In this document: in pieces, positions 19,060 to 40,783 of the stretch | Layout: each line of letters begins with the position of its first letter | How positions within the stretch are numbered: position 1 is the first letter of the stretch | Source: Sulfuricurvum sp. | GTDB lineage: Bacteria; Campylobacterota; Campylobacteria; Campylobacterales; Sulfurimonadaceae | Length of the DNA stretch: 64,000 bases | Direction: 5' to 3' | NCBI RefSeq assembly: GCF_028712165.1 | Contig: NZ_JAQTQR010000002.1 | Span: 1-64,000 of the forward strand | The notes under the pieces: generated by a model | The model's input: the letters and a program-made list of their open reading frames with translations, nothing else | Database searches by the model: none | What the model was told of the DNA's origin: nothing | Program-made: the position numbers and the translations under genes

Positions 19060-19146
19060 AATAAATTTTATGCTTTAAATATTCGTTTAAGTTATCCAGA
19101 CGTACAATACTGAATGATTGTTCATAAATATTTTGAGGAGGGGACC

Positions 19147-20385
19147 ATGTCCGATAAAATAGAAGCGGTTAAAAAACTGTTTACTTCGAAAAGTTCGCGC
19201 GTTGAAACGAACAAGGGTGATACATATTACCAAGAGTTGTTCGCGAAATGTGAAGCGCGATTAAATGAAATGCGTGCTCAAACGCCTGCAAATAGACTCG
19301 ACTTTTCTGAGCTTTTAGAAGAGAATGGAATTGACAGACGAGAGTTTATGAAATGGGCGAGTGCGACGACGGCTATGTTGATGCTCCCTCCGATGTTTAC
19401 ACCGTTGGTTGCTGATGCTGCGGTGATGATGAACCGTGCCCCTGTTATTTGGTTGGAGCTTCAAGACTGTGCCGGTAACTCCGAAGCGCTTTTACGTGCT
19501 GACGGACCGAAAATTGATGAAATCGTACTGGATATCATCTCCCTCGAATATCATGAGACCCTCCAAGCTGCAGCCGGTTTTCAGGCTGAAAAACAGCTCG
19601 ATGAGGCTATGGAAACGTTCAAAGGAAAATATCTTTTATTCGTAGAAGGTTCTATTCCGATGGGGATGAACGGTCAATACGGAACGATCGGTGCTGCCGG
19701 TGAAACGTTCCACGATCATCTCATGCGTTGTTCTGAAAATGCGGCAGCGGTTATCGCTGTCGGTGCGTGTGCAACGTTCGGCGGTATCCCGGCTGCTTCT
19801 CCGAATCCTACCGGTGCGGTAGGGGTTATGAATCTCGTTAAAAATAAACCGGTTATCAATATTCCGGCATGTCCTGCAAATCCGGCAAATATGGTCGGGG
19901 TTATTTTGCATTATCTATTGACAGGTCAAGTACCGGAACTCGATTCACTTCTCCGTCCTAAATTCGCATTCGGATACCGTATCCACGATAACTGCGAACG
20001 CCGCGCACACTTTGATGCTGGTGAATATGTAGAAGAGTGGGGCGACAAAGGGGCACAAAACAATTTCTGTCTCTATAAAATGGGTTGTAAAGGGCCGATG
20101 ACATTCAATAACTGTTCAATCGTCCGTTATAACGAAGCGGTGAACTGGCCGATCGGTGTAGGACGTGGATGTATCGGGTGTTCTGAACCTGATTTCTGGG
20201 ATAAATACGCGTATGAACGTCCGATGGCGGATGCTAAGATCAAAGCACCGACAGGTGGAGTTGAGAAAAGTGTGGATGAATTCGGTTTGGGTATGTTGAC
20301 CGCAGCCGGTATCGGTATCGCGATCCATGCAGCAGCAAGCACCGTAGCAGGTAAACGAGATAATTCAGGAGAGAGCCATGAGTAA
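19147..20385 (+). CDS. hydA: Exported uptake NiFe hydrogenase small subunit HydA
   Basis: The 412-residue small subunit of the membrane-bound periplasmic uptake hydrogenase. A Tat signal (DRREFMKW at 63-70, hydrophobic 71-90) follows an unusually long 60-residue leader. The cluster-binding domain starts at about 98 with DCAGNSE (Cys108; Asn111 replaces the expected Cys), then GACATFGG, ACPANPAN, HDNCERR, KMGCKGP and CIGC. A C-terminal hydrophobic helix (about 375-400) anchors it to the membrane. The start at 19147 has GAGGAGG upstream and is preferred over 19114. It is first in hydABC. Confidence 0.94.
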   Translation: MSDKIEAVKKLFTSKSSRVETNKGDTYYQELFAKCEARLNEMRAQTPANRLDFSELLEENGIDRREFMKWASATTAMLMLPPMFTPLVADAAVMMNRAPVIWLELQDCAGNSEALLRADGPKIDEIVLDIISLEYHETLQAAAGFQAEKQLDEAMETFKGKYLLFVEGSIPMGMNGQYGTIGAAGETFHDHLMRCSENAAAVIAVGACATFGGIPAASPNPTGAVGVMNLVKNKPVINIPACPANPANMVGVILHYLLTGQVPELDSLLRPKFAFGYRIHDNCERRAHFDAGEYVEEWGDKGAQNNFCLYKMGCKGPMTFNNCSIVRYNEAVNWPIGVGRGCIGCSEPDFWDKYAYERPMADAKIKAPTGGVEKSVDEFGLGMLTAAGIGIAIHAAASTVAGKRDNSGESHE

Positions 20386-22153
20386 GCATATAGTAGTTGA
20401 CCCAATTACCCGTATCGAAGGACATTTACGCATCGAGGCGGTAATTGATGAAAATAACACGATTGTTGATGCGTACAGTGCATCGACTATGTTCCGCGGA
20501 ATTGAGACGATTTTACAAGGGCGTGACCCACGTGACTGCGGACTATTGGCAATGCGTATTTGCGGTGTTTGTACCGGTACACACTATCAACGTTCTATCG
20601 AAGCGGTTGAGGATGCGTTTGGAGTTACAATTCCTAAAAATGCACGTATCGTACGTAACCTGATCCAAGGTGCGTTGTATGTACACGATCACCTTGTTCA
20701 CTTCTATCATCTTCATGCACTTGACTTTGTCGATGTTGTTTCTGCACTTTCCGCAGATCCGGCTAAAACGGCGGCTGAAGCACGTAAATGGGCGGCAGTT
20801 GCGGGTGAATCACCGTTTATCGACGGTGAGGGCGAATTTAAAGCGATCCAAGATCGTGTGGCTAAATTTGTAAAACAAGGGCGTTTAGGGATTTTTGGTA
20901 ACGGATATTGGGGTAATCCTCATTATAAGTTGACTCCGGAACAAAACCTTATCGGTGTTGCACACTATTTGCAAGCATTGGACATTCAACGCGATTTGGC
21001 AAAAATGCAGGCGATTTTCGGGGGTAAAAACCCGCATCCTCAATCGATTGTTGTCGGTGGTGTAACGTGTGTCCAAGACATTGAAAATCCGGCACGTATC
21101 GCATTGTTTAAATCCTTACTCCTTGCAGGGCGTAAATTTGTAAAAGAAGCGTATTTGCCGGATGTTTACATGGCGGGTACGATGTATGCGGGTGAAGCAA
21201 CCGACTCAAAAGCGACCTTTACGGAACTTATGGGCGGAAAAGGGGTTGGTGGAACCGGCGGCGGATTACTCAACTATATGAGTTACGGTGATTTCCGTCT
21301 CGATGATACCGGTTTTTATAAATCAGCACTTCTCTTCCCAAGCGGTGTTGTTTATGGCGGTGACATCAGTAAAGTAGCAGATGTCGATCAAGCAAAAATT
21401 GCGGAAGACGTGACACACTCATGGTATAAAGGGGATAAACCTCTTCACCCGTATGAGGGACAAACGATTCCGGAATATACGGGTCTTGATAAACGTGAAG
21501 ACGGTATCGCATATCTTAAAACAAAAGAAAAATACAGCTGGATCAAATCTCCGATCTATAACGATACCCGTGTTGAAGTGGGGCCGTTGGCTCGTATGGT
21601 AATCGGTGTAGCACGTAAAGATCCTCGTATTACCAAATATGTAACAGAATTTTTACAACGCGGTAACTTACCGATTGCAGTGCTCTTTAGTACCGTCGGG
21701 CGTACTGCTGCGCGTGCTGTTGAAACATCATTGATGTCCGATGTGATGATCGAGTGGGTAGACGAACTTGCTGCTAACGTAATGGCAGGAGATAAGAGTA
21801 CATGGACACACTTTGACTTCGATAAAGTAAGTGTGAGTGCAAAAGGTCACGGTATGGCTGAAGCTCCACGTGGTTCATTGGGACACTGGGTGAGCGTTGA
21901 GAATGGAAAAGTGGCAAACTACCAAGCGGTTGTCCCTTCTACATGGAACGCAGCTCCTCGTGATCATAAAGGACGTTTGGGTGCGTATGAAGCGAGTTTG
22001 ATCGGAACCAAAGTGGCGAATCCGGAACAACCTCTTGAGATCATTCGAACCATTCACAGTTTTGACCCTTGTATTGCTTGTGCGGTACACGTTGTCGATA
22101 CCAAAGGTAAAGAGCTTGCTGTTTACAAAGTAGATACCTCTTGCAGTATCTAA
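20378..22153 (+). CDS. hydB: Uptake NiFe hydrogenase large subunit HydB
   Basis: The 591-residue catalytic subunit. DPITRIEGHLRIE opens the protein, RICGVCTGTH is the first Ni motif and DPCIACAVH the second. The 19 residues after the His (VVDTKGKEL...) are the propeptide removed by a HydD-type protease before export with HydA. It oxidises H2 in the periplasm and passes electrons through HydA to HydC and menaquinone. It overlaps hydA by 8 bp. Sequence layout is very like the 13061 large subunit. Confidence 0.96.
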   Translation: MSKHIVVDPITRIEGHLRIEAVIDENNTIVDAYSASTMFRGIETILQGRDPRDCGLLAMRICGVCTGTHYQRSIEAVEDAFGVTIPKNARIVRNLIQGALYVHDHLVHFYHLHALDFVDVVSALSADPAKTAAEARKWAAVAGESPFIDGEGEFKAIQDRVAKFVKQGRLGIFGNGYWGNPHYKLTPEQNLIGVAHYLQALDIQRDLAKMQAIFGGKNPHPQSIVVGGVTCVQDIENPARIALFKSLLLAGRKFVKEAYLPDVYMAGTMYAGEATDSKATFTELMGGKGVGGTGGGLLNYMSYGDFRLDDTGFYKSALLFPSGVVYGGDISKVADVDQAKIAEDVTHSWYKGDKPLHPYEGQTIPEYTGLDKREDGIAYLKTKEKYSWIKSPIYNDTRVEVGPLARMVIGVARKDPRITKYVTEFLQRGNLPIAVLFSTVGRTAARAVETSLMSDVMIEWVDELAANVMAGDKSTWTHFDFDKVSVSAKGHGMAEAPRGSLGHWVSVENGKVANYQAVVPSTWNAAPRDHKGRLGAYEASLIGTKVANPEQPLEIIRTIHSFDPCIACAVHVVDTKGKELAVYKVDTSCSI

Positions 22154-33845: not shown

Positions 33846-34721
33846 ATGTGTAAAGATTGCGGATGTTCTATAACAACAAACCACCACCAGCACGGACATA
33901 CCCATGTCGATGAATTCGGTCGGGAATATACCCACGTACATGATCATGAACACGATGAAGATGCACACCCTCACGAGGGGGGACATCACCATCATCATCA
34001 TGACGATGAACATTCTCATACCCATCAGGCAGCGCATGAGACATTGCACCATAACCCGCAGCTCAACGACACCAAAACGATTGCGGTGATCAAAAAGATT
34101 TTAGACAAAAACGACCAAGAAGCACACTATAACCGCGAGCACTTTAATGAACATGGAGTATTGGCGATCAATCTGATGAGTTCTCCCGGCAGCGGAAAAA
34201 CAACGCTGCTCGAAAAGATGGGTAGCCTAGCCCCGTTTAAATTCGGTGTCGTCGAAGGGGACTTGGAGACGTCACGCGATGCGGATCGTCTCAAAGCGGT
34301 TGGTATTCCTGCAGTGCAAATACAGACGGGAAGCGCGTGCCATCTGGATGCGTTTATGGTTCACAAAGGGCTGCATGATCTTCCTCTGGCCCCTTTGGAT
34401 GTCTGTTTTATCGAAAATGTCGGAAACCTCGTTTGTCCGGCAAGCTATGATGTGGGATCGCATCTCAATATCGTATTGGTTTCTATCCCTGAAGGAGAAG
34501 ATAAAATCGCCAAATATCCGGTGATGTTCAGGGCAGCCGATCTGATCCTTATTACGAAAACCGATCTGCTTCCGTATTTCCAATACGACATCGAGCGCGA
34601 AAAAGCCGAAGCCCGTAAAATCAAACCGAACGTTGATATTTTGGAAGTAAACATTAACGACGAAGCTTCGATCAAACGGGTGATCGAATGGATCGAATTT
34701 AAACGAAAGATGAGAGCATAA
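33846..34721 (+). CDS. hypB: Nickel-insertion GTPase HypB with a His-rich nickel store
   Basis: A 291-residue protein. The N-terminus has the CxxCGC site (MCKDCGC) that binds nickel with high affinity, then a long His-rich stretch (about 13-68) for nickel storage. The GTPase domain has SSPGSGKTT (about 112-120), a metal/dimer site including SACHLD, and the TKTDL base-recognition motif. With HypA it inserts nickel into the large subunits. It starts the hyp block. Confidence 0.97.
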   Translation: MCKDCGCSITTNHHQHGHTHVDEFGREYTHVHDHEHDEDAHPHEGGHHHHHHDDEHSHTHQAAHETLHHNPQLNDTKTIAVIKKILDKNDQEAHYNREHFNEHGVLAINLMSSPGSGKTTLLEKMGSLAPFKFGVVEGDLETSRDADRLKAVGIPAVQIQTGSACHLDAFMVHKGLHDLPLAPLDVCFIENVGNLVCPASYDVGSHLNIVLVSIPEGEDKIAKYPVMFRAADLILITKTDLLPYFQYDIEREKAEARKIKPNVDILEVNINDEASIKRVIEWIEFKRKMRA

Positions 34722-34723
34722 TT

Positions 34724-35017
34724 ATGTGTTTATCCATACCTTCAAAAGTGGTCAAAATCGATACGGATCTCAACATCGCTACGGTCGATACGATGGGTGT
34801 TCAGCGTACTGCCGGATTGGATTTGATGGAAGAGGGCTCTGTGCAAGTCGGCGATTACGTGTTGCTGCATATCGGATTTATTATGAACAAAATCGATGAA
34901 GAGGATGCTCTCGAATCGCTGAGGGTCTATCAGGAAATTCTCGAAAAACTCGATGAGGAAGAGCGTCGGCAACTTGTTCTCGAAGATGATAATTGTGTCA
35001 ATAGAGAAGCCCCATGA
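34724..35017 (+). CDS. hypC: Hydrogenase chaperone HypC
   Basis: A 97-residue small chaperone with the invariant N-terminal MCLSIPSKV, whose Cys2 carries the Fe(CN)2CO group between HypD and the large subunit. It lies 2 bp after hypB and overlaps hypD by 4 bp (ATGA). Confidence 0.96.
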   Translation: MCLSIPSKVVKIDTDLNIATVDTMGVQRTAGLDLMEEGSVQVGDYVLLHIGFIMNKIDEEDALESLRVYQEILEKLDEEERRQLVLEDDNCVNREAP

Positions 35018-36135
35018 GCTCTCTCGAACTCAAAGATCTTTATGATGGGTTTCGCGATCCCGAGGTTATAAAAGGGTATCAAAAACTGATTGCGGCAGAC
35101 GCACAAAAGCTCTCCCGTACCATCAACATCATGGAGGTATGCGGCGGACATACCCATACCATCATGAAATACGGTATTTTGCAGCTGTTGCCTGAGAATA
35201 TCAAATTCGTTCACGGTCCGGGGTGCCCTGTCTGTATCATGCCCAAAGAACGGATTGATCATGCCTATGTGCTCTCTCAGCAGCCAAACGTCATTTTGGT
35301 GACATTGGGCGACATGATCAAAGTCCCCGGAAGTAACGGAAGCTTGCAGGACGCACGGAGCAAAGGTGCGGACGTTCGTTTCGTCTACTCGCCTCTGGAT
35401 TGTCTGAAGATCGCAAAAGAGAATCCCGATAAAACGGTTATCTTCTTTGCCATAGGGTTTGAGACGACCACTCCGATGACTGCGGCGCTTTTGGATACGA
35501 TGATAAAGGAGAATATTACCAATATCCTCTTGCATCTCAACCATGTCACGGTTCCCGAACCGATGCGCGCGCTCATCAGTGACGAGGCGTGCATCATCGA
35601 TGCGTTTTTGGGGCCTTCGCATGTCAGTGTCATCAGCGGAAGCAAAATCTACGAAGAGTTTCCGCGAGATTGGGGAAAACCCATCGTCGTCAGCGGATTC
35701 GAGCCGGTGGACGTGATGCAGTCAATCAGTATGATTGTCAAACAGTTCATTGAAAATCGGTGTGAACTCGAAGTGGAATACCATCGCGCCGTGACGCGCG
35801 ATGGAAATCTTAAAGCCCAAGCGTTGAATGATAAATATTTCCATAAGGTAGACTTTCGCTGGCGCGGATTAGGCGATATCCCCCAAAGTGGACTGGGTCT
35901 GCGTCCGGAGTATGACCGATACAACGCCGAGAAGATTTACGATGCAGTACTGCCAAAAGAGGAGATCGACGATCATAAACTCTGCATCTGCGGCGATATC
36001 CTAAAAGGGAAAGCTTCTCCGCCGCAGTGTACTATATTTGGCACGGCGTGTAAACCGACAAGCCCGGTGGGGAGTTGTATGGTAAGTTCTGAGGGTGCAT
36101 GTGCGGCGTATTATAAGTATGGGAATTTGGTATAA
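35014..36135 (+). CDS. hypD: Iron-cyanide scaffold protein HypD
   Basis: A 373-residue scaffold on which Fe(CN)2CO is built. Conserved motifs are present: MEVCGGHTH (about 43-51), GPGCPVC (about 70-76), FAIGFETTTP (about 149) and the C-terminal Cys cluster (CICGDILKG, PPQCTIFGTAC, GSCMVSSEGAC) for the [4Fe-4S] cluster. It is the last gene of the first hyp segment. The next gene in the usual order, hypE, is 3.3 kb away. Confidence 0.97.
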   Translation: MSSLELKDLYDGFRDPEVIKGYQKLIAADAQKLSRTINIMEVCGGHTHTIMKYGILQLLPENIKFVHGPGCPVCIMPKERIDHAYVLSQQPNVILVTLGDMIKVPGSNGSLQDARSKGADVRFVYSPLDCLKIAKENPDKTVIFFAIGFETTTPMTAALLDTMIKENITNILLHLNHVTVPEPMRALISDEACIIDAFLGPSHVSVISGSKIYEEFPRDWGKPIVVSGFEPVDVMQSISMIVKQFIENRCELEVEYHRAVTRDGNLKAQALNDKYFHKVDFRWRGLGDIPQSGLGLRPEYDRYNAEKIYDAVLPKEEIDDHKLCICGDILKGKASPPQCTIFGTACKPTSPVGSCMVSSEGACAAYYKYGNLV

Positions 36136-36147
36136 TCTATAAAGATT

Positions 36148-36451
36148 ATGAATCTAAATAAGGCTTTGGAAGATACGGGAGAGAGTACGCCGTTTATAGA
36201 ATTTATCCTCAAAACTGAAAAATATTTTGAGTGAAAATGTCCCAATAAATGTCTCTAAAAATCGTTTGAATGAGATCGTAAAAATGATCGAAAAAAACAA
36301 AGAGATCACATCGATACAGATAGCCGAGCGATTAAAAGTAAGTGATAAAACCATCAAAAGGGATATGGCGACTCTCAAAGAGCAGGGGAGACTGCAGAGG
36401 GTTGGTAGTTTGAAAAGTGGGTATTGGGAAGTGTTGAATGATAGTGAATAA
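36148..36451 (+). pseudogene. Remnant of a Fic-family gene with a winged-helix end
   Basis: Codons from 36148 read MNLNKALEDTGESTPFIEFIL and soon meet a stop. The frame from about 36233 reads VPINVSKNRLNEIVKMIEKN...TIKRDMATLK...GYWEVL. In Fic proteins with a C-terminal winged helix these two stretches are close neighbours. The catalytic Fic domain (HxFx(D/E)GNGR) is absent. It is therefore a decayed 3' end, placed between hypD and the Septu-like pair. Confidence 0.7.
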
Positions 36452-36471
36452 TGCTGAAAGTATCTCGTCAT

Positions 36472-36490
36472 CCTCGGGCTTGACCCGGGG
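36472..36490 (+). repeat. REP-like palindrome
   Basis: The palindrome CCTCGGG-N5-CCCGGGG lies within the context CGTCATCCTCGGGCTTGACC, a kind of dispersed intergenic repeat seen in many bacterial genomes. It stands just before the 36530 gene and may mark the end of the inserted defence segment. Confidence 0.5.
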
Positions 36491-36529
36491 ATCCATCCCA
36501 AGAATAGAAATACGAAATTAGGAATTTAG

Positions 36530-38350
36530 ATGGAATTAGTCTATTTATGGGTCGAAGAGTATAAAAATATTTATCATCAGGGATTTAATTTTAGTCCGAA
36601 GTTTGAGTGTGAGTTTAAAGATGAATATGATGAGGATGGAAAATTAAAAGATAAGTGTGAACTGATAATCAAGCCAAAAGAAAATATCGAAAACTTTTTT
36701 GGCGAAAATATCAATGTCGCGGCAATTGTTGGAGAAAATGGGAGTGGAAAAAGTCGATTATTCGATCTTCTATGTAGGCTGAGTCTTGAATTTTTATACA
36801 ACGAAAGAATTATTGTCATATTTTGGAATGAAACAATATTATCTTGTGAATTTTTCAATATTAACGATATTAACTTTATTAACAAAAGCGAGATAACATA
36901 CAAAGATATATATAAGAAAGCTGATTCTACTCAATACGGGCTAAATGGTGTTAAAAGTTTATATTTTGAAAATAATTCAATTATTCATTTGACAGAATCA
37001 CATATAGACCCTCTTATCCAATATAAAAATACAGCTAATTTTAATTATCTAGGAAATTACAAAACAATTAATAATAACAATATTATTTTATTGTCTGACA
37101 TTTTGTTTACCTTTAATGAAAATCTTTTAATTTACAGAGCAGCATTTGAAGATATCCAAAAAGTTTTTGAGCAACTTTCTTTGAAGCTGCCTACGGTATA
37201 TGTACTTTATATTCAAATTGAAGATTATGAAATTCGAGCAAATAATTTTATTCAAGCATTAAAAAAACATGGTTGTGCACCGCAGCAATGTTCTGAAATA
37301 AAACAAAAAATGGATGCAATTGAGGAAACTATAGGCTATGAGGAAAAAATATGGCTTGCTTTATTACTGAGTCAATACATTTCCTCACAAAATTTAGTTC
37401 CTATTATCAATTCTGAAAGAGCATTTATTGAGTCTTATAAACGAACACATGAAGTCGAACCATGCATTGAAGAATACTTTAATACACAAAATGAATATGA
37501 TGGCTCATTTGCATTTCTGACTGAATTTGAAAACATTAAGAAATTTATTGAAAAAACAAAACAACTTGGAGATATTCATTGGTCTCAATCTCAAAAAGTA
37601 TGGGCAGTCTTAGCAAATAAAATAGACGATGAATTCATTCAACTGTATAGCAAACTTACAACAAAACAAATCATAAAATTTGACATGCTTGATGAAACGA
37701 CAAGTCCAATTATTTATAGTTCCGGTGAAATCACTTTTTTAAATTTATTTTTCAAGCTATATTCAATTAAAATTCATAGTTTTGACAATTTAACAAATAA
37801 TGTAACTATTCTATTTGATGAAATAGAACTCTATTTACATCCAAATTGGCAAAAATTTTTATTTGGTCAACTTCTTAAAATTTTAGAATTTGTTTTTCCT
37901 CCTTTTGTAAAAATACACTTATTAATAGCTACTCATTCCCCTTTCATACTCTCTGACATACCCAAAGAAAATGTGATTTTTTTGGAAAAAGATGAGGCTA
38001 CTGGAAATTGTATAAATGTAACTACAGAAACAAAAATTGACACTTTCGGCGCAAACATCCACACCCTCCTTTCTCACGGTTTTTTTATGAAAGATGGTTT
38101 GATGGGAGAGTTTGCGAAAGGAAAAATCACAGAAATTTTAAATTTTCTCAATGATAAAGAAGCATTAAAAACTATACAAGAAAATCAAATAAAACCTATT
38201 ATAGAGTCTATCGGTGAAGATTTTTTAAGAAATAAGCTTTTAAATTTATATCGTAAAAAACTTTCTGAAGATGAAAAAGAAAAAGAAAAGCAAAGTTTGA
38301 AAGATAAAATTGATGAGCTAATAAGACAATATGATGAGTTAAGCAAATGA
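36530..38350 (+). CDS. AAA/ABC-type ATPase, PtuA-like (Septu defence)
   Basis: A 606-residue SMC/OLD-style ATPase. Walker A is GENGSGKS (68-75), the signature-like SSGE precedes FLNLFFKLYS (about 400), Walker B is ILFDEIE (about 427), and the switch THSPFIL is near 468; a charged coiled tail follows. Base composition is much more A/T-rich than the hyp genes. It overlaps the HNH gene by 4 bp. This ATPase plus HNH-nuclease pair is the PtuA-PtuB layout of Septu anti-phage systems. No retron reverse transcriptase is next to it. Confidence 0.8.
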   Translation: MELVYLWVEEYKNIYHQGFNFSPKFECEFKDEYDEDGKLKDKCELIIKPKENIENFFGENINVAAIVGENGSGKSRLFDLLCRLSLEFLYNERIIVIFWNETILSCEFFNINDINFINKSEITYKDIYKKADSTQYGLNGVKSLYFENNSIIHLTESHIDPLIQYKNTANFNYLGNYKTINNNNIILLSDILFTFNENLLIYRAAFEDIQKVFEQLSLKLPTVYVLYIQIEDYEIRANNFIQALKKHGCAPQQCSEIKQKMDAIEETIGYEEKIWLALLLSQYISSQNLVPIINSERAFIESYKRTHEVEPCIEEYFNTQNEYDGSFAFLTEFENIKKFIEKTKQLGDIHWSQSQKVWAVLANKIDDEFIQLYSKLTTKQIIKFDMLDETTSPIIYSSGEITFLNLFFKLYSIKIHSFDNLTNNVTILFDEIELYLHPNWQKFLFGQLLKILEFVFPPFVKIHLLIATHSPFILSDIPKENVIFLEKDEATGNCINVTTETKIDTFGANIHTLLSHGFFMKDGLMGEFAKGKITEILNFLNDKEALKTIQENQIKPIIESIGEDFLRNKLLNLYRKKLSEDEKEKEKQSLKDKIDELIRQYDELSK

Positions 38351-39438
38351 TTGAAATTACAAAGAATTTGTCTTTACAGAAAATTCATATAGATTTTTTA
38401 AAACCCAAACTTGAAGACAGAATCGACACTATAATAATAGGTGGGAAAATTACTAAAAACAACAATGATATACATTTAAATGATCATATAAAATCTTGTT
38501 TGCTTTGTATAAAAAATAATTTAGAAATCATTCTTGGAGCAAATCCCGATGAACTGAAAAAAATCATAAAATTTTTTCAATTTAAATACCCTTGTGTTGC
38601 AAAAAAACATGAAGATAAAAAGAATCAACCTCCTATTTATACAATAGTTTATAATATTTTTGTAGATAATGGATATGACGATTATTTATCAAAAGTAGAA
38701 GTTGAGAAGCAAAAAGATAAGAATAAATTCAAAGAAGAAAAAGAATATCACGCTTATAAATTAGTTGAAAATTTAGGAATTAAAACTTGTCCTTATTGCA
38801 ATAGAAGTTATATTTCATTTGTAAATGAAAAAAAAGATGAAGAGAACCAAAAAACAAAGAAAAAAACTCGTCCACAACTTGATCACTTTTATCCCAAGGC
38901 AATTTATCCATTCTTAGCTTGTAGTTTTTACAATCTCATTCCAAGTTGTAGTGCTTGTAATCATATGAAAAGTGATGATGATAGTTACGAAGATGAAAAA
39001 ACTGGAGATTTGGTGCATCCTTATGATGTAAAAAATAGTGATTTTACATTCTCATATACTTTAAATAATCTTGATATTTTAAATATTATCGATAAAAAAA
39101 ATATCAAATTAGAAGATGAGAAAAATATTACAATCACTCTCGATAGAAAATATGAAAAAAATAATGAATATTTCCAACTGGAGACTATTTATCAAAATCA
39201 TAAAGATATAGTCATTGAACTCATTTTGAAAGAGATTAATTATCCGAAGAGTTATATTAATGAATTAATTAGTAATGGGTTTGCTACTGAAGAAGAAATT
39301 TATCGCTTTATCTTTTCAAATTATTTAGATGTTAATGATTTACATAAAAGACCACTTAGCAAACTTACTAAAGATATCGTCAGTGAATTGGGAATCCTAT
39401 ATAAAATTGAGTTAGCAGTAAAAGAAAAAATTGTTTAA
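38347..39438 (+). CDS. HNH endonuclease, PtuB-like (Septu defence)
   Basis: A 363-residue protein with an HNH nuclease core: CPYCNRSY (about 147-154), LDHFYPKAIYPFLA (about 179-192, catalytic His), SFYNLIPSCSACNHMKS (about 195-211). The paired CxxC motifs hold zinc. The rest is A/T-rich, Lys/Asn/Asp-heavy sequence. It should cut nucleic acid once the ATPase partner senses infection. It overlaps the ATPase gene and ends 10 bp before hypE. Confidence 0.82.
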   Translation: MIEITKNLSLQKIHIDFLKPKLEDRIDTIIIGGKITKNNNDIHLNDHIKSCLLCIKNNLEIILGANPDELKKIIKFFQFKYPCVAKKHEDKKNQPPIYTIVYNIFVDNGYDDYLSKVEVEKQKDKNKFKEEKEYHAYKLVENLGIKTCPYCNRSYISFVNEKKDEENQKTKKKTRPQLDHFYPKAIYPFLACSFYNLIPSCSACNHMKSDDDSYEDEKTGDLVHPYDVKNSDFTFSYTLNNLDILNIIDKKNIKLEDEKNITITLDRKYEKNNEYFQLETIYQNHKDIVIELILKEINYPKSYINELISNGFATEEEIYRFIFSNYLDVNDLHKRPLSKLTKDIVSELGILYKIELAVKEKIV

Positions 39439-39448
39439 AAGGAATGAA

Positions 39449-40441
39449 ATGACCAAAACCATAACCCTCGCCCAAGGCAACGGCGGCGAAGAGAACAATG
39501 AACTGATCAAAAAGGTGTTTTACAAAGCCTTTAAAAACGAGATATTAGAGCGGAGCGAAGATGCGGCGGTGATCGGGAATCTGGCGATGACGACCGACAG
39601 CTTTACGGTGAGTCCGCTGTTTTTTGCGGGAGCGGATATCGGCAAGCTCGCCGTGTGCGGAACGTGCAACGACCTCGCCATGATGGGGGCGCAGCCGAAG
39701 TATTTGACGTGCAGCGTCATTATCGAAGAGGGGTTTGAAGTCGAGTCGCTGGAGCGGATCGTTGAGAGCATGAGAGCGGAATTGGCGATCAACGGTGCGG
39801 TCGTGGTCAGCGGCGATACCAAGGTAGTGCCGAAGGGGAGCGTGGACAAGATTTTCATCAACACGACGGGTCTGGGCGAGATCGTCCAAGCGGGGATCAG
39901 CTCGAACAACGTGAGCGAAGAGGATGTCATCCTCATCAACCGCGACATCGGATGCCACGGGGCGACGATTTTCGCCGCGCGTGAGGGGATTGAAATGAGC
40001 AGTACGTTACGCTCCGACTGTAACTCATTGTACCCGCAGGTCAAAGCGCTTTTGGATGCGGGGGTGAAGATCACGGCGATGCGTGATGCGACGCGCGGAG
40101 GGGTCGCTGCGGTGCTCAACGAATGGGCGCGCCAATCGAACGTCTGTATCGAGATCGACGAAGAAAAACTCCCTATAAGCGATGAGGTTATGGGGATCTG
40201 CGAGATGCTGGGCTTTGAAGCTACTGCTCTGGCGAATGAGGGGACGTTTGTACTGGCGATCAAAAAAGAGGACGCTCAAAAGGCCATAGAGATACTCAAG
40301 AGTTTCGAGGTGTGCGCTATGGCTTCAGCGGTAGGCGAAGTGACCCAAAAGTACCCGAAAAAAGTGATCTTGAAAAGTCCGTGGGGGACGTCTCGGTTTT
40401 TAGAGACCCCTAACGGCGAACTGCTTCCGAGGATCTGTTAG
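39449..40441 (+). CDS. hypE: Carbamoyl dehydratase HypE
   Basis: A 330-residue ATP-dependent enzyme that turns the HypF-delivered carbamoyl group into thiocyanate on its C-terminal Cys. The chain ends PRIC as required. LAQGNGGEENNELI opens the protein, and TTDSFTVSPLFFAGADIGKLAVCGTCNDLAMMGA-type PurM-fold motifs follow. The start 39449 is chosen for AAAAGGAA upstream. It lies directly after the Septu pair, 3.3 kb from hypD, and 0 bp before hypA. Confidence 0.96.
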   Translation: MTKTITLAQGNGGEENNELIKKVFYKAFKNEILERSEDAAVIGNLAMTTDSFTVSPLFFAGADIGKLAVCGTCNDLAMMGAQPKYLTCSVIIEEGFEVESLERIVESMRAELAINGAVVVSGDTKVVPKGSVDKIFINTTGLGEIVQAGISSNNVSEEDVILINRDIGCHGATIFAAREGIEMSSTLRSDCNSLYPQVKALLDAGVKITAMRDATRGGVAAVLNEWARQSNVCIEIDEEKLPISDEVMGICEMLGFEATALANEGTFVLAIKKEDAQKAIEILKSFEVCAMASAVGEVTQKYPKKVILKSPWGTSRFLETPNGELLPRIC

Positions 40442-40783
40442 ATGCATGAATATTCGATAGTACAAGCATTACTAACGCAGTGTGAAGATATAGCGCGTGA
40501 AAATGAAGCGGAGTCGGTCACGAAGATCATTGTCAAGATCGGTAAAATGTCTGGAGTGGAACCGCATCTGCTCGAAATCGCATTCAATACCTTTAAAGAG
40601 AAAACGGTATGTGACGGTGCCGATTTTGTGTTGAACGTACAGCCTCTGGTGATCGAGTGCAAAGAGTGCGGGGTACAGACAACCTTGGATGAGATTTTTT
40701 ATAAATGTCCCGCGTGTGAAAGTTTGGATGTCAAAGTGATCGACGGCGAAGATATGTATTTAATGACGTTGGAAATGGAGTAG
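40442..40783 (+). CDS. hypA: Nickel metallochaperone HypA
   Basis: A 113-residue protein. The N-terminal MHEYSIV has the nickel-binding Met1-His2-Glu3. The zinc site is CKECG (about 75-79) with CPACES (about 95-100). It works with HypB to load nickel. It follows hypE without a gap. Confidence 0.97.
   Translation: MHEYSIVQALLTQCEDIARENEAESVTKIIVKIGKMSGVEPHLLEIAFNTFKEKTVCDGADFVLNVQPLVIECKECGVQTTLDEIFYKCPACESLDVKVIDGEDMYLMTLEME

What the first reader, a model, noticed from the sequence alone, without database searches (positions are those of the whole stretch)
36136..39448. Septu-like defence pair inside the hyp operon
hypD and hypE, which normally follow each other, are separated by 3.3 kb carrying an A/T-rich AAA ATPase plus HNH nuclease (PtuA/PtuB layout), with a Fic remnant and a REP-like palindrome on the left edge. 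The HNH gene ends 10 bp before hypE, so hypEA may now be transcribed with the defence genes. A defence unit riding on a housekeeping operon would be maintained and expressed whenever hydrogenase is made.
Basis: partly seen in the sequence, partly recalled or inferred. Interest (0 to 1): 0.65.

Follow-up and report, generated by a model that had tools for sequence, protein, structure and literature searches.

The report
Defence-gene hotspot inside a hydrogenase operon
Two probable anti-virus genes sit exactly between two hydrogenase-assembly genes in a Sulfuricurvum genome, and relatives show that this one gene joint repeatedly gains and swaps passenger genes, mostly of anti-virus type, all pointing the same way as the host genes, apparently by short-homology recombination and not by any mobile element.

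Summary
hypD and hypE, which overlap by ATGA in empty relatives, are split by 3.3 kb of A/T-rich DNA holding a Fic relic, a REP palindrome, an ABC-type ATPase and an HNH protein that ends 10 bp before hypE. The pair is PADLOC's candidate system PDC-M62, a remote relative of Septu PtuA/PtuB, but it scores below the curated cut-offs for PtuA and TIGR02646. The larger finding is the site. The hypD|hypE joint is an insertion hotspot inside an operon in Sulfuricurvum (8 of 33 genomes) and Sulfurimonas (20 of 38 sampled). hypB|C and hypC|D are never split. In 41 inserts, 127 of 128 ORFs of 100 aa or more point with hyp; the one exception is a shadow ORF. Cargo includes SoFic, McrBC, PifA-type KAP ATPases, type II R-M, Hhe and PDC-M62, plus SixA, aldo-keto reductase and VF530. 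PDC-M62 reached this joint at least four times independently. No integrase or transposase was seen. Loaded Sulfuricurvum loci carry a shared 35-38 nt hypE 5' end, and some inserts hold internal hypD 3' or hypE 5' fragments. I infer modules recombined at the gene ends and co-transcribed with hyp. Expression and defence activity were not tested.

The parts
33846..34721 (+). hypB (hydrogenase nickel incorporation GTPase), upstream operon member
   Evidence: PF02492 7e-18; joint with hypC never split in 74 loci
34724..35017 (+). hypC
   Evidence: PF01455 3e-24; joint with hypD never split in 81 loci
35014..36135 (+). hypD; its 3' end is the left border of the insertion site
   Evidence: PF01924 6e-150, TIGR00075 2e-152; in empty relatives its stop overlaps the hypE start as ATGA
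36158..36451 (+). Fic gene remnant: core deleted, C-terminal winged helix-turn-helix left (open frame 36227-36451)
   Evidence: 81% nt identity to the intact Fic gene of G012, 92% to that of G007, both at the same junction; intact homologue is SoFic, 7e-46
36468..36494 (.). REP-type palindrome; left limit of homology with PDC-M62 copies located in the bat operon
   Evidence: 3 copies in this genome; identical REP about 36 bp upstream of the M62A start in G015 and G003
36530..38350 (+). PDC-M62A: PtuA-like ABC-type ATPase (P-loop GENGSGK 68-74, SxGE signature-like 397-400, DE 430-431, HSPF 469-472)
   Evidence: PADLOC PDC-M62A 1.2e-97; invariant motifs in 11 relatives; PDB profile hits PtuA 8.7e-23; Foldseek top hits PtuA, weak model
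38347..39438 (+). PDC-M62B: PtuB-like HNH nuclease (CPYCN 148-152, DH 179-180, CSACN 201-205)
   Evidence: PADLOC PDC-M62B 3e-69; invariant C148, C151, H180, N196, C201, C204, N205 in 12 relatives; PtuB 9n69_F 1.2e-5
39439..39443 (+). AAGGA ribosome-binding site of hypE, supplied by the inserted DNA
   Evidence: sequence, 5 nt before the hypE ATG
39449..39486 (+). hypE 5' tag (first 38 nt), the shared recombined segment found only in loaded loci of the genus
   Evidence: exact core in 7 of 60 genomes, all loaded, once per genome; 38/38 identity to G003 followed by 47/82
39449..40441 (+). hypE
   Evidence: TIGR02124 2e-130
40442..40783 (+). hypA
   Evidence: PF01155 1.4e-31

Best explanation
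The hypD|hypE joint of Sulfurimonadaceae is a recombination hotspot inside a core operon, free of recognisable mobility genes. Accessory modules, mostly anti-phage, enter exactly at the ATGA overlap. Incoming DNA carrying [hypD 3' end - module - hypE 5' end] crosses over in the last roughly 50-115 nt of hypD and the first roughly 24-40 nt of hypE. Occasional one-sided events leave gene-end fragments inside the island, so modules stack and replace one another. Inserts are kept only if they read with hyp and restore a start signal for hypE, so the cargo becomes part of the hyp transcription unit. In this genome a Fic (SoFic-type) cargo decayed, and a REP-bordered PDC-M62 pair, a Septu-like ATPase plus HNH nuclease, took its place. 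The pair most likely acts like PtuAB: the ATPase senses infection and licenses the HNH subunit to cut a nucleic acid, possibly a tRNA as Septu and retron-Eco7 do, which stops phage growth. Shown: recurrence, precision, orientation, mosaic gene ends, scars and homology. Inferred: the recombination route, co-transcription, defence activity and target.
For: Empty ATGA sites in many relatives. Inserts in 8 of 33 Sulfuricurvum and 20 of 38 sampled Sulfurimonas genomes, tallied by hand, with the neighbouring hypB|C and hypC|D joints 0 of 74 and 0 of 81 split. 127 of 128 cargo ORFs of at least 100 aa read with hyp. Median spacing 0 bp between cargo genes, 8 bp from the last cargo stop to the hypE ATG, 11 bp from the hypD stop to the first cargo start. 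The hypE 5' tag is present in 7 of 9 loaded and no empty Sulfuricurvum loci (Fisher 7e-6, not corrected for relatedness). G003 matches the window 38/38 in nt 1-38 and then 47/82. G012 equals G002 at 96/96 in nt 25-120 but only 17/24 in nt 1-24, where it matches G027 at 22/24. Scars: a hypD 3' fragment of about 110 nt inside the G421 insert, a hypE 5' fragment inside G403, and a hypD 3' fragment in front of G003 cargo while the true hypD lies 64 kb away. PDC-M62 reached the joint at least 4 times. Cargo annotation. PtuAB cuts tRNA-Tyr: PMC13096335.
Against: No transcript or phage data. Many genomes are draft MAGs and represent one genome per species. Some cargo (SixA, aldo-keto reductase, VF530, patatin) is not defence. 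The tag statistic is not corrected for shared ancestry, although it appears in two hypE clades about 68% alike. M62A modelled poorly (pLDDT 55), M62B gave no structural hit, and its PtuB link rests on one E = 1e-5 profile hit. PDC-M62 pairs overall are not enriched in operons. The absence of integrases was judged from the annotated cargo representatives and by reading the ORFs, not by a dedicated recombinase search.
Confidence: 0.72

Rival explanations
1. A dedicated site-specific element uses the hypD 3' end and hypE 5' end as attachment sites, with the recombinase encoded in trans or lost.
For: Exact, repeated insertion point; element-like replacement of the hypE 5' end by a shared 35-38 nt tag; hypD 3' and hypE 5' fragments duplicated inside islands, reminiscent of att sites.
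Against: No recombinase among the annotated cargo. The hypD is joined directly to cargo with no displaced hypE start in most loci. Cargo sizes and contents share no common end sequence beyond hyp itself, and the tag occurs once per genome.
Confidence: 0.12
2. One ancient insertion at the joint, inherited vertically, with cargo lost or exchanged by ordinary deletion.
For: Some modules (SixA, aldo-keto reductase, VF530) recur in the same order in Sulfurimonas.
Against: Empty loci keep the exact ATGA overlap across the genus. PDC-M62 arrived at least 4 times on strongly supported branches. hypE 5' ends are mosaic between clades.
Confidence: 0.08
3. The pair is not a defence system but another ATPase/HNH repair or toxin module that happens to sit in a hyp operon.
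For: PDC-M62 is only a candidate, identified bioinformatically; curated Septu models are not met; plasmid hits are weak and phage hits nearly absent.
Against: Closest solved relatives of the ATPase are Septu and retron PtuA and the PARIS ATPase AriA; its island neighbours are known defence types; the same family sits beside a true-looking PtuAB pair in the cob operon of G007.
Confidence: 0.15

Closest known systems
Septu (PtuA/PtuB) and retron I-A (Ec78/Eco7, Ec83) PtuAB effectors
   Same: Two-gene ABC-type ATPase plus HNH nuclease in that order; ATPase profile hits PtuA chains (9e-23 to 1e-16), HNH profile hits PtuB of TIGR02646 (1e-5); conserved P-loop, DE, HSPF and CxxC/DH/CxxCN motifs.
   Different: Scores far under the curated cut-offs (47.6 of 500 bits for PtuA, 17.8 of 52 for TIGR02646); conserved MELVYLWV start and TFGANIHTLLSHGFFM...GEFAK C-terminal block; longer HNH protein; no reverse transcriptase recognised nearby.
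PADLOC candidate PDC-M62
   Same: Both proteins match full length (1e-97, 3e-69); a published comparison found DefenseFinder calling many PDC-M62 loci Septu (PMC11811056).
   Different: Nothing important; this is a member. Its activity is unproven.
Core defence hotspots (for example cDHS1/2 of Pseudomonas aeruginosa, PMC10250203) and integrase-free hotspots driven by recombination at flanking core genes (PMC5635113)
   Same: Hypervariable defence cargo between two fixed core genes, low GC, no recognisable mobile element.
   Different: Here the two flanks are adjacent, overlapping genes of one operon and the cargo is always co-directional and tightly packed. [quoted passage not shown]

Membership tests
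Septu (PtuAB) | PtuA and PtuB recognised by the curated family models | tested here: not met
   NF041760 47.6 bits against a cut-off of 500; TIGR02646 17.8 against 52.15
Septu (PtuAB) | ABC-type ATPase gene followed by HNH gene | tested here: met
   HNH Pfam hit itself is sub-threshold (15.5 of 21.4 bits)
Septu (PtuAB) | Walker A/B and HNH catalytic residues intact | tested here: met
   P-loop 68-74, D430/E431, H180, N205 invariant in relatives; corresponding mutants abolish Septu defence in PMC13096335
Septu (PtuAB) | Phage defence through ATPase-licensed tRNA-Tyr cleavage | not testable with these tools
   needs cloning, phage challenge and tRNA analysis
PDC-M62 (PADLOC candidate) | Adjacent matches to the M62A and M62B profiles over full length | tested here: met
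   1.2e-97 over 1-598 and 3e-69 over 1-350
Retron I-A | Reverse transcriptase and msr-msd next to PtuAB | tested here: not met
   neighbours are hypD, a Fic relic, hypE, hypA; no RT ORF in the surroundings
Core defence hotspot | Variable defence cargo between the same two core genes in many strains, with empty sites | tested here: met
Integrase-free hotspot by flanking homologous recombination | No mobility genes in the cargo | tested here: met
   no integrase or transposase among the annotated cargo representatives; small singletons were judged by eye only
Integrase-free hotspot by flanking homologous recombination | Recombination signal in the flanking core genes | tested here: met
   mosaic hypE 5' ends; scars
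Integron or site-specific cassette array | Integrase and attC-like sites at cassette borders | tested here: inconclusive
   no integrase seen in the cargo; no systematic attC search was made; the borders are hyp gene ends

The most novel reading that the evidence does not exclude
Defence modules in these bacteria use the ends of core operon genes themselves as exchange handles. A module flanked by about 50-115 nt of hypD 3' end and 25-40 nt of hypE 5' end is swapped between species and genera as an operon-borne cassette, so that immunity genes are carried and expressed by a housekeeping transcription unit without mobility genes of their own. The bat (BatD|MoxR) and cob operons may be further sites of the same kind.
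Probability: 0.4. Interest if true: 0.75.

Novelty: new variant of a known kind. Interest (0 to 1): 0.58.

Why it matters
Defence islands are usually described between transcription units or on mobile elements, and new genes are said to enter operons mainly at their edges (PMC5635113). Here one joint in the middle of a conserved operon has repeatedly taken in immunity genes, always in the reading direction of the host, with the recombination tracts still readable to the nucleotide. This offers a natural test of how immunity genes move without mobile elements, and of whether tying them to a metabolic operon (hydrogen oxidation) sets when they are expressed. It also gives a place to look for unknown defence genes: the unassigned proteins at this joint are good candidates.

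Tried and rejected
(1) That PDC-M62 pairs are in general operon riders: neighbours of 55 pairs are no more co-directional than control genes (65% against 62%; downstream gap under 60 bp 47% against 59%), so this was dropped. (2) That the REP is a structured leader or terminator: the RNA fold has z = -0.12 and no terminator is called. (3) That a conserved leader (GATACCATTAAAACACATATAAATTTT) is specific to PDC-M62: it is mostly found 90-106 bp upstream of M62A genes, but it also precedes a PifA-type KAP gene in G002 and a RecQ-like gene in G004, so it is more likely a left-border sequence. (4) Structure comparison of M62B gave nothing; the M62A model is too weak to add more than support. (5) A phage or plasmid origin: one weak phage hit, 33 plasmid hits all under 60% identity and none covering 80%. 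(6) An assembly artefact: single-contig genomes of relatives show inserts at the same joint. Paper searches for earlier reports of this hotspot found none in the open-access library; subscription papers were not searchable.
Full report
WHAT IS THERE. It carries a [NiFe] hydrogenase region: small and large subunits (19114-22153), a cytochrome b (22164), hypF (25001), a maturation protease (27244), cbiM (31613), then hypB-hypC-hypD (33846-36135), hypE (39449) and hypA (40442). Between hypD and hypE lie 3.3 kb of DNA with 24-30% GC against 44-57% in the flanking hyp genes. They hold a Fic remnant, a REP palindrome, a 606-aa ATPase and a 363-aa HNH-like protein. The two large genes are intact and overlap by 4 bp. 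The second ends 10 bp before the hypE ATG, and the inserted DNA supplies an AAGGA ribosome-binding site 5 nt before hypE.

THE PAIR. PADLOC names it PDC-M62A/PDC-M62B (1.2e-97 and 3e-69, full length), a candidate system; PtuA profiles follow at 2e-19 and PtuB at 2e-10. A profile of 11 M62A relatives hits, as best solved structures, the PtuA ATPases of retrons Ec83 and Ec78 (8.7e-23 and weaker) and Septu PtuA 8ee4 (1.4e-16), then the PARIS ATPase AriA (3e-14). The M62B profile hits one chain only, a PtuB of TIGR02646 (1.2e-5), aligned through the CxxC, the HFYxK and the NL(I/F)xSC blocks. Motifs are intact and invariant: P-loop 68-74, SxGE 397-400, DE 430-431, HSPF 469-472 in M62A; C148/C151, H180, C201/C204/N205 in M62B. 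Foldseek with the weak M62A model (pLDDT 55) also ranks PtuA first; the M62B model (pLDDT 70) finds nothing. The pair is below the curated thresholds for Septu proper. It is therefore a Septu-like member of PDC-M62 and not a Septu. [quoted passage not shown] PMC11555353). A similar ATPase-licensed nuclease action is the likeliest mechanism here, with target unknown.

THE FIC RELIC AND THE REP. Relatives G007, G010 and G012 carry an intact Fic gene at the same joint, which matches SoFic at 7e-46. The window keeps the left edge of such an insert (90% identity to G007 over 36100-36168) and the Fic 3' part (81% to G012, 92% to G007 over its last 205 nt), with the core deleted. The older cargo was therefore Fic. 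The PDC-M62 pair then arrived with a left border at the REP. The REP-to-ATG block is nearly identical in G015 and G003, where PDC-M62 sits in the bat operon, and homology stops at the left end of the REP in the window. A leader that lies upstream of the REP in those copies is absent here.

THE SITE IS A HOTSPOT. In empty relatives hypD and hypE overlap as ATGA. Using a hypD-hypE fusion query and counting by hand genomes with both genes on one contig, 8 of 33 Sulfuricurvum genomes and 20 of 38 sampled Sulfurimonas genomes have more than 400 bp between them. One more Sulfuricurvum (G003) has cargo in front of hypE with hypD elsewhere. Other genera of the family, and members of the order outside it (G044, G306, G192, G051), also have inserts. 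In the loci fetched, which were chosen to include inserts, hypB|C was split in 0 of 74 and hypC|D in 0 of 81, hypD|E in 43 of 82. Inserts run from 0.4 to 15.8 kb. Of 128 non-overlapping ORFs of at least 100 aa in 41 inserts, 127 read with hyp, 133 kb in all; the single exception is a shadow of the Fic relic in the window. Packing is operon-like: median 0 bp between cargo genes, 8 bp to hypE, 11 bp from hypD.

THE CARGO. Representatives were identified by Pfam and PADLOC: SoFic-type Fic (11 genomes), McrC plus an AAA_5 partner (9 each), PifA-type KAP ATPase (1.7e-82; 4), a second KAP type, PDC-S49 (4), DUF1016 nucleases, PDC-S02 (6), PDC-M62 pairs (4), a type II restriction-modification pair with an Mrr/STAND protein (G421), Hhe/PDC-S37 (G464), nucleotidyltransferase and HepT-like genes, ORF6N and KilA-N proteins, MazG-like. 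Not defence as far as known: SixA-type phosphatase with its partner (18 genomes), aldo-keto reductase (11), VF530 (8), patatin. No integrase or transposase was recognised. G112 holds further hydrogenase genes in the gap, and G192 a protein that reads like a sodium-coupled transporter (both identified by eye only).

HOW IT MOVES. Three kinds of evidence point to short recombination tracts at the gene ends. First, the hypE 5' core CCCTCGCCCAAGGCAACGGYGG is found in exactly 7 of 60 relatives, once each, always at hypE, and all seven are loaded. G003, whose hypE is only 68% alike in protein, matches the window 38/38 in nt 1-38 and 47/82 in nt 39-120. G012 is identical to empty G002 from nt 25 to 120 (96/96) but not in nt 1-24 (17/24), where it matches another clade (22/24 with G027). 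Second, gene-end fragments lie inside islands: a hypD 3' end of about 110 nt between two modules in G421, a hypE 5' end between two modules in G403, and a hypD 3' end before the cargo of G003, whose hypD is 64 kb away. Third, a tree of 68 M62A proteins places the five hyp-located copies in at least four separate, strongly supported positions. [quoted passage not shown] ComEC- and DprA-family genes are present, which allows but does not prove natural transformation.

WHAT IT MEANS FOR EXPRESSION. No terminator-like site occurs in the insert, promoter-like sites are at chance level, all cargo is co-directional, and the hypE start signal is restored. Transcription with hyp is therefore likely but was not measured.

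CONTROLS AND LIMITS. PDC-M62 pairs from 55 loci are not more co-directional with their neighbours than control genes, so the riding is a property of the hotspot. Similar scars exist at a second site: in the bat operon of G025 and G004 only the first 28 and about 12 codons of M62A remain, followed by other genes. Many genomes are MAGs, one per species; relatedness was not corrected for in the simple counts; novelty was checked only in an open-access library.

VERDICT. The pair itself is a new member of a known candidate family. The hotspot inside the operon, with its strict orientation and readable recombination tracts, is a new variant of the known core defence hotspot.

Noticed in passing
L086:6750-9688 (G000:C129): A second PDC-M62 pair of the same genome, about 36% identical over its best stretch, lies in the bat operon between a BatD-like gene and moxR; G015, G003 and G023 have pairs at the same or a neighbouring place in front of moxR.
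   Followed up: partly
L222:1235-3558 and L223:1368-2706: At the bat locus of G004 and G025 only the first roughly 12 and 28 codons of M62A remain, followed by a RecQ-like gene and an unknown gene: scars of cassette replacement like those at hyp.
   Followed up: partly
L114:303-5917 (G007:C3): The cobalamin operon of G007 carries both a PtuA/PtuB-like pair (442 and 236 aa) and a PDC-M62 pair; PDC-M62 pairs recur in cob operons of G026, G034 and two Sulfurimonas (L148, L210).
   Followed up: partly
L060:4079-7987 (G007): A 1303-aa cargo protein between Fic and DUF1016 with a P-loop-like start (GEPASGKTKQ) has no Pfam or PADLOC match; candidate new defence ATPase.
   Followed up: partly
L099:1641-8105 (G125): Insert of 47% GC with a 1189-aa SMC-like protein (DUF3584) and two preceding genes resembling a JetABC-type set, unassigned by PADLOC.
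   Followed up: no
L053:13336-13572, L055, L091, L099:2204-2437: A small ORF of 75-78 aa (FGLNIHDDGNCKYVL...LPFY..W) recurs as the gene before KAP-type or unknown cargo; two copies end in a REP-encoded NPVRPELVEG tail.
   Followed up: no
window:40787-41536: DUF695-RraB fusion directly behind hypA, conserved at this place in most clade-A Sulfuricurvum loci.
   Followed up: no
window:22976-24898: 640-aa protein next to hypF whose only Pfam match is one HypF-type zinc finger (PF07503).
   Followed up: no
L175, L186, L191, L217: Four Sulfurovum PDC-M62 pairs from different branches all precede the same radical-SAM-like gene (MSNIIFGPIHSRRFGKSLGVDLSP), suggesting another recurrent site.
   Followed up: no
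G014:C21:3239-3265: A REP copy sits between hypE and hypA in G014, where hypA is displaced by about 90 bp.
   Followed up: no
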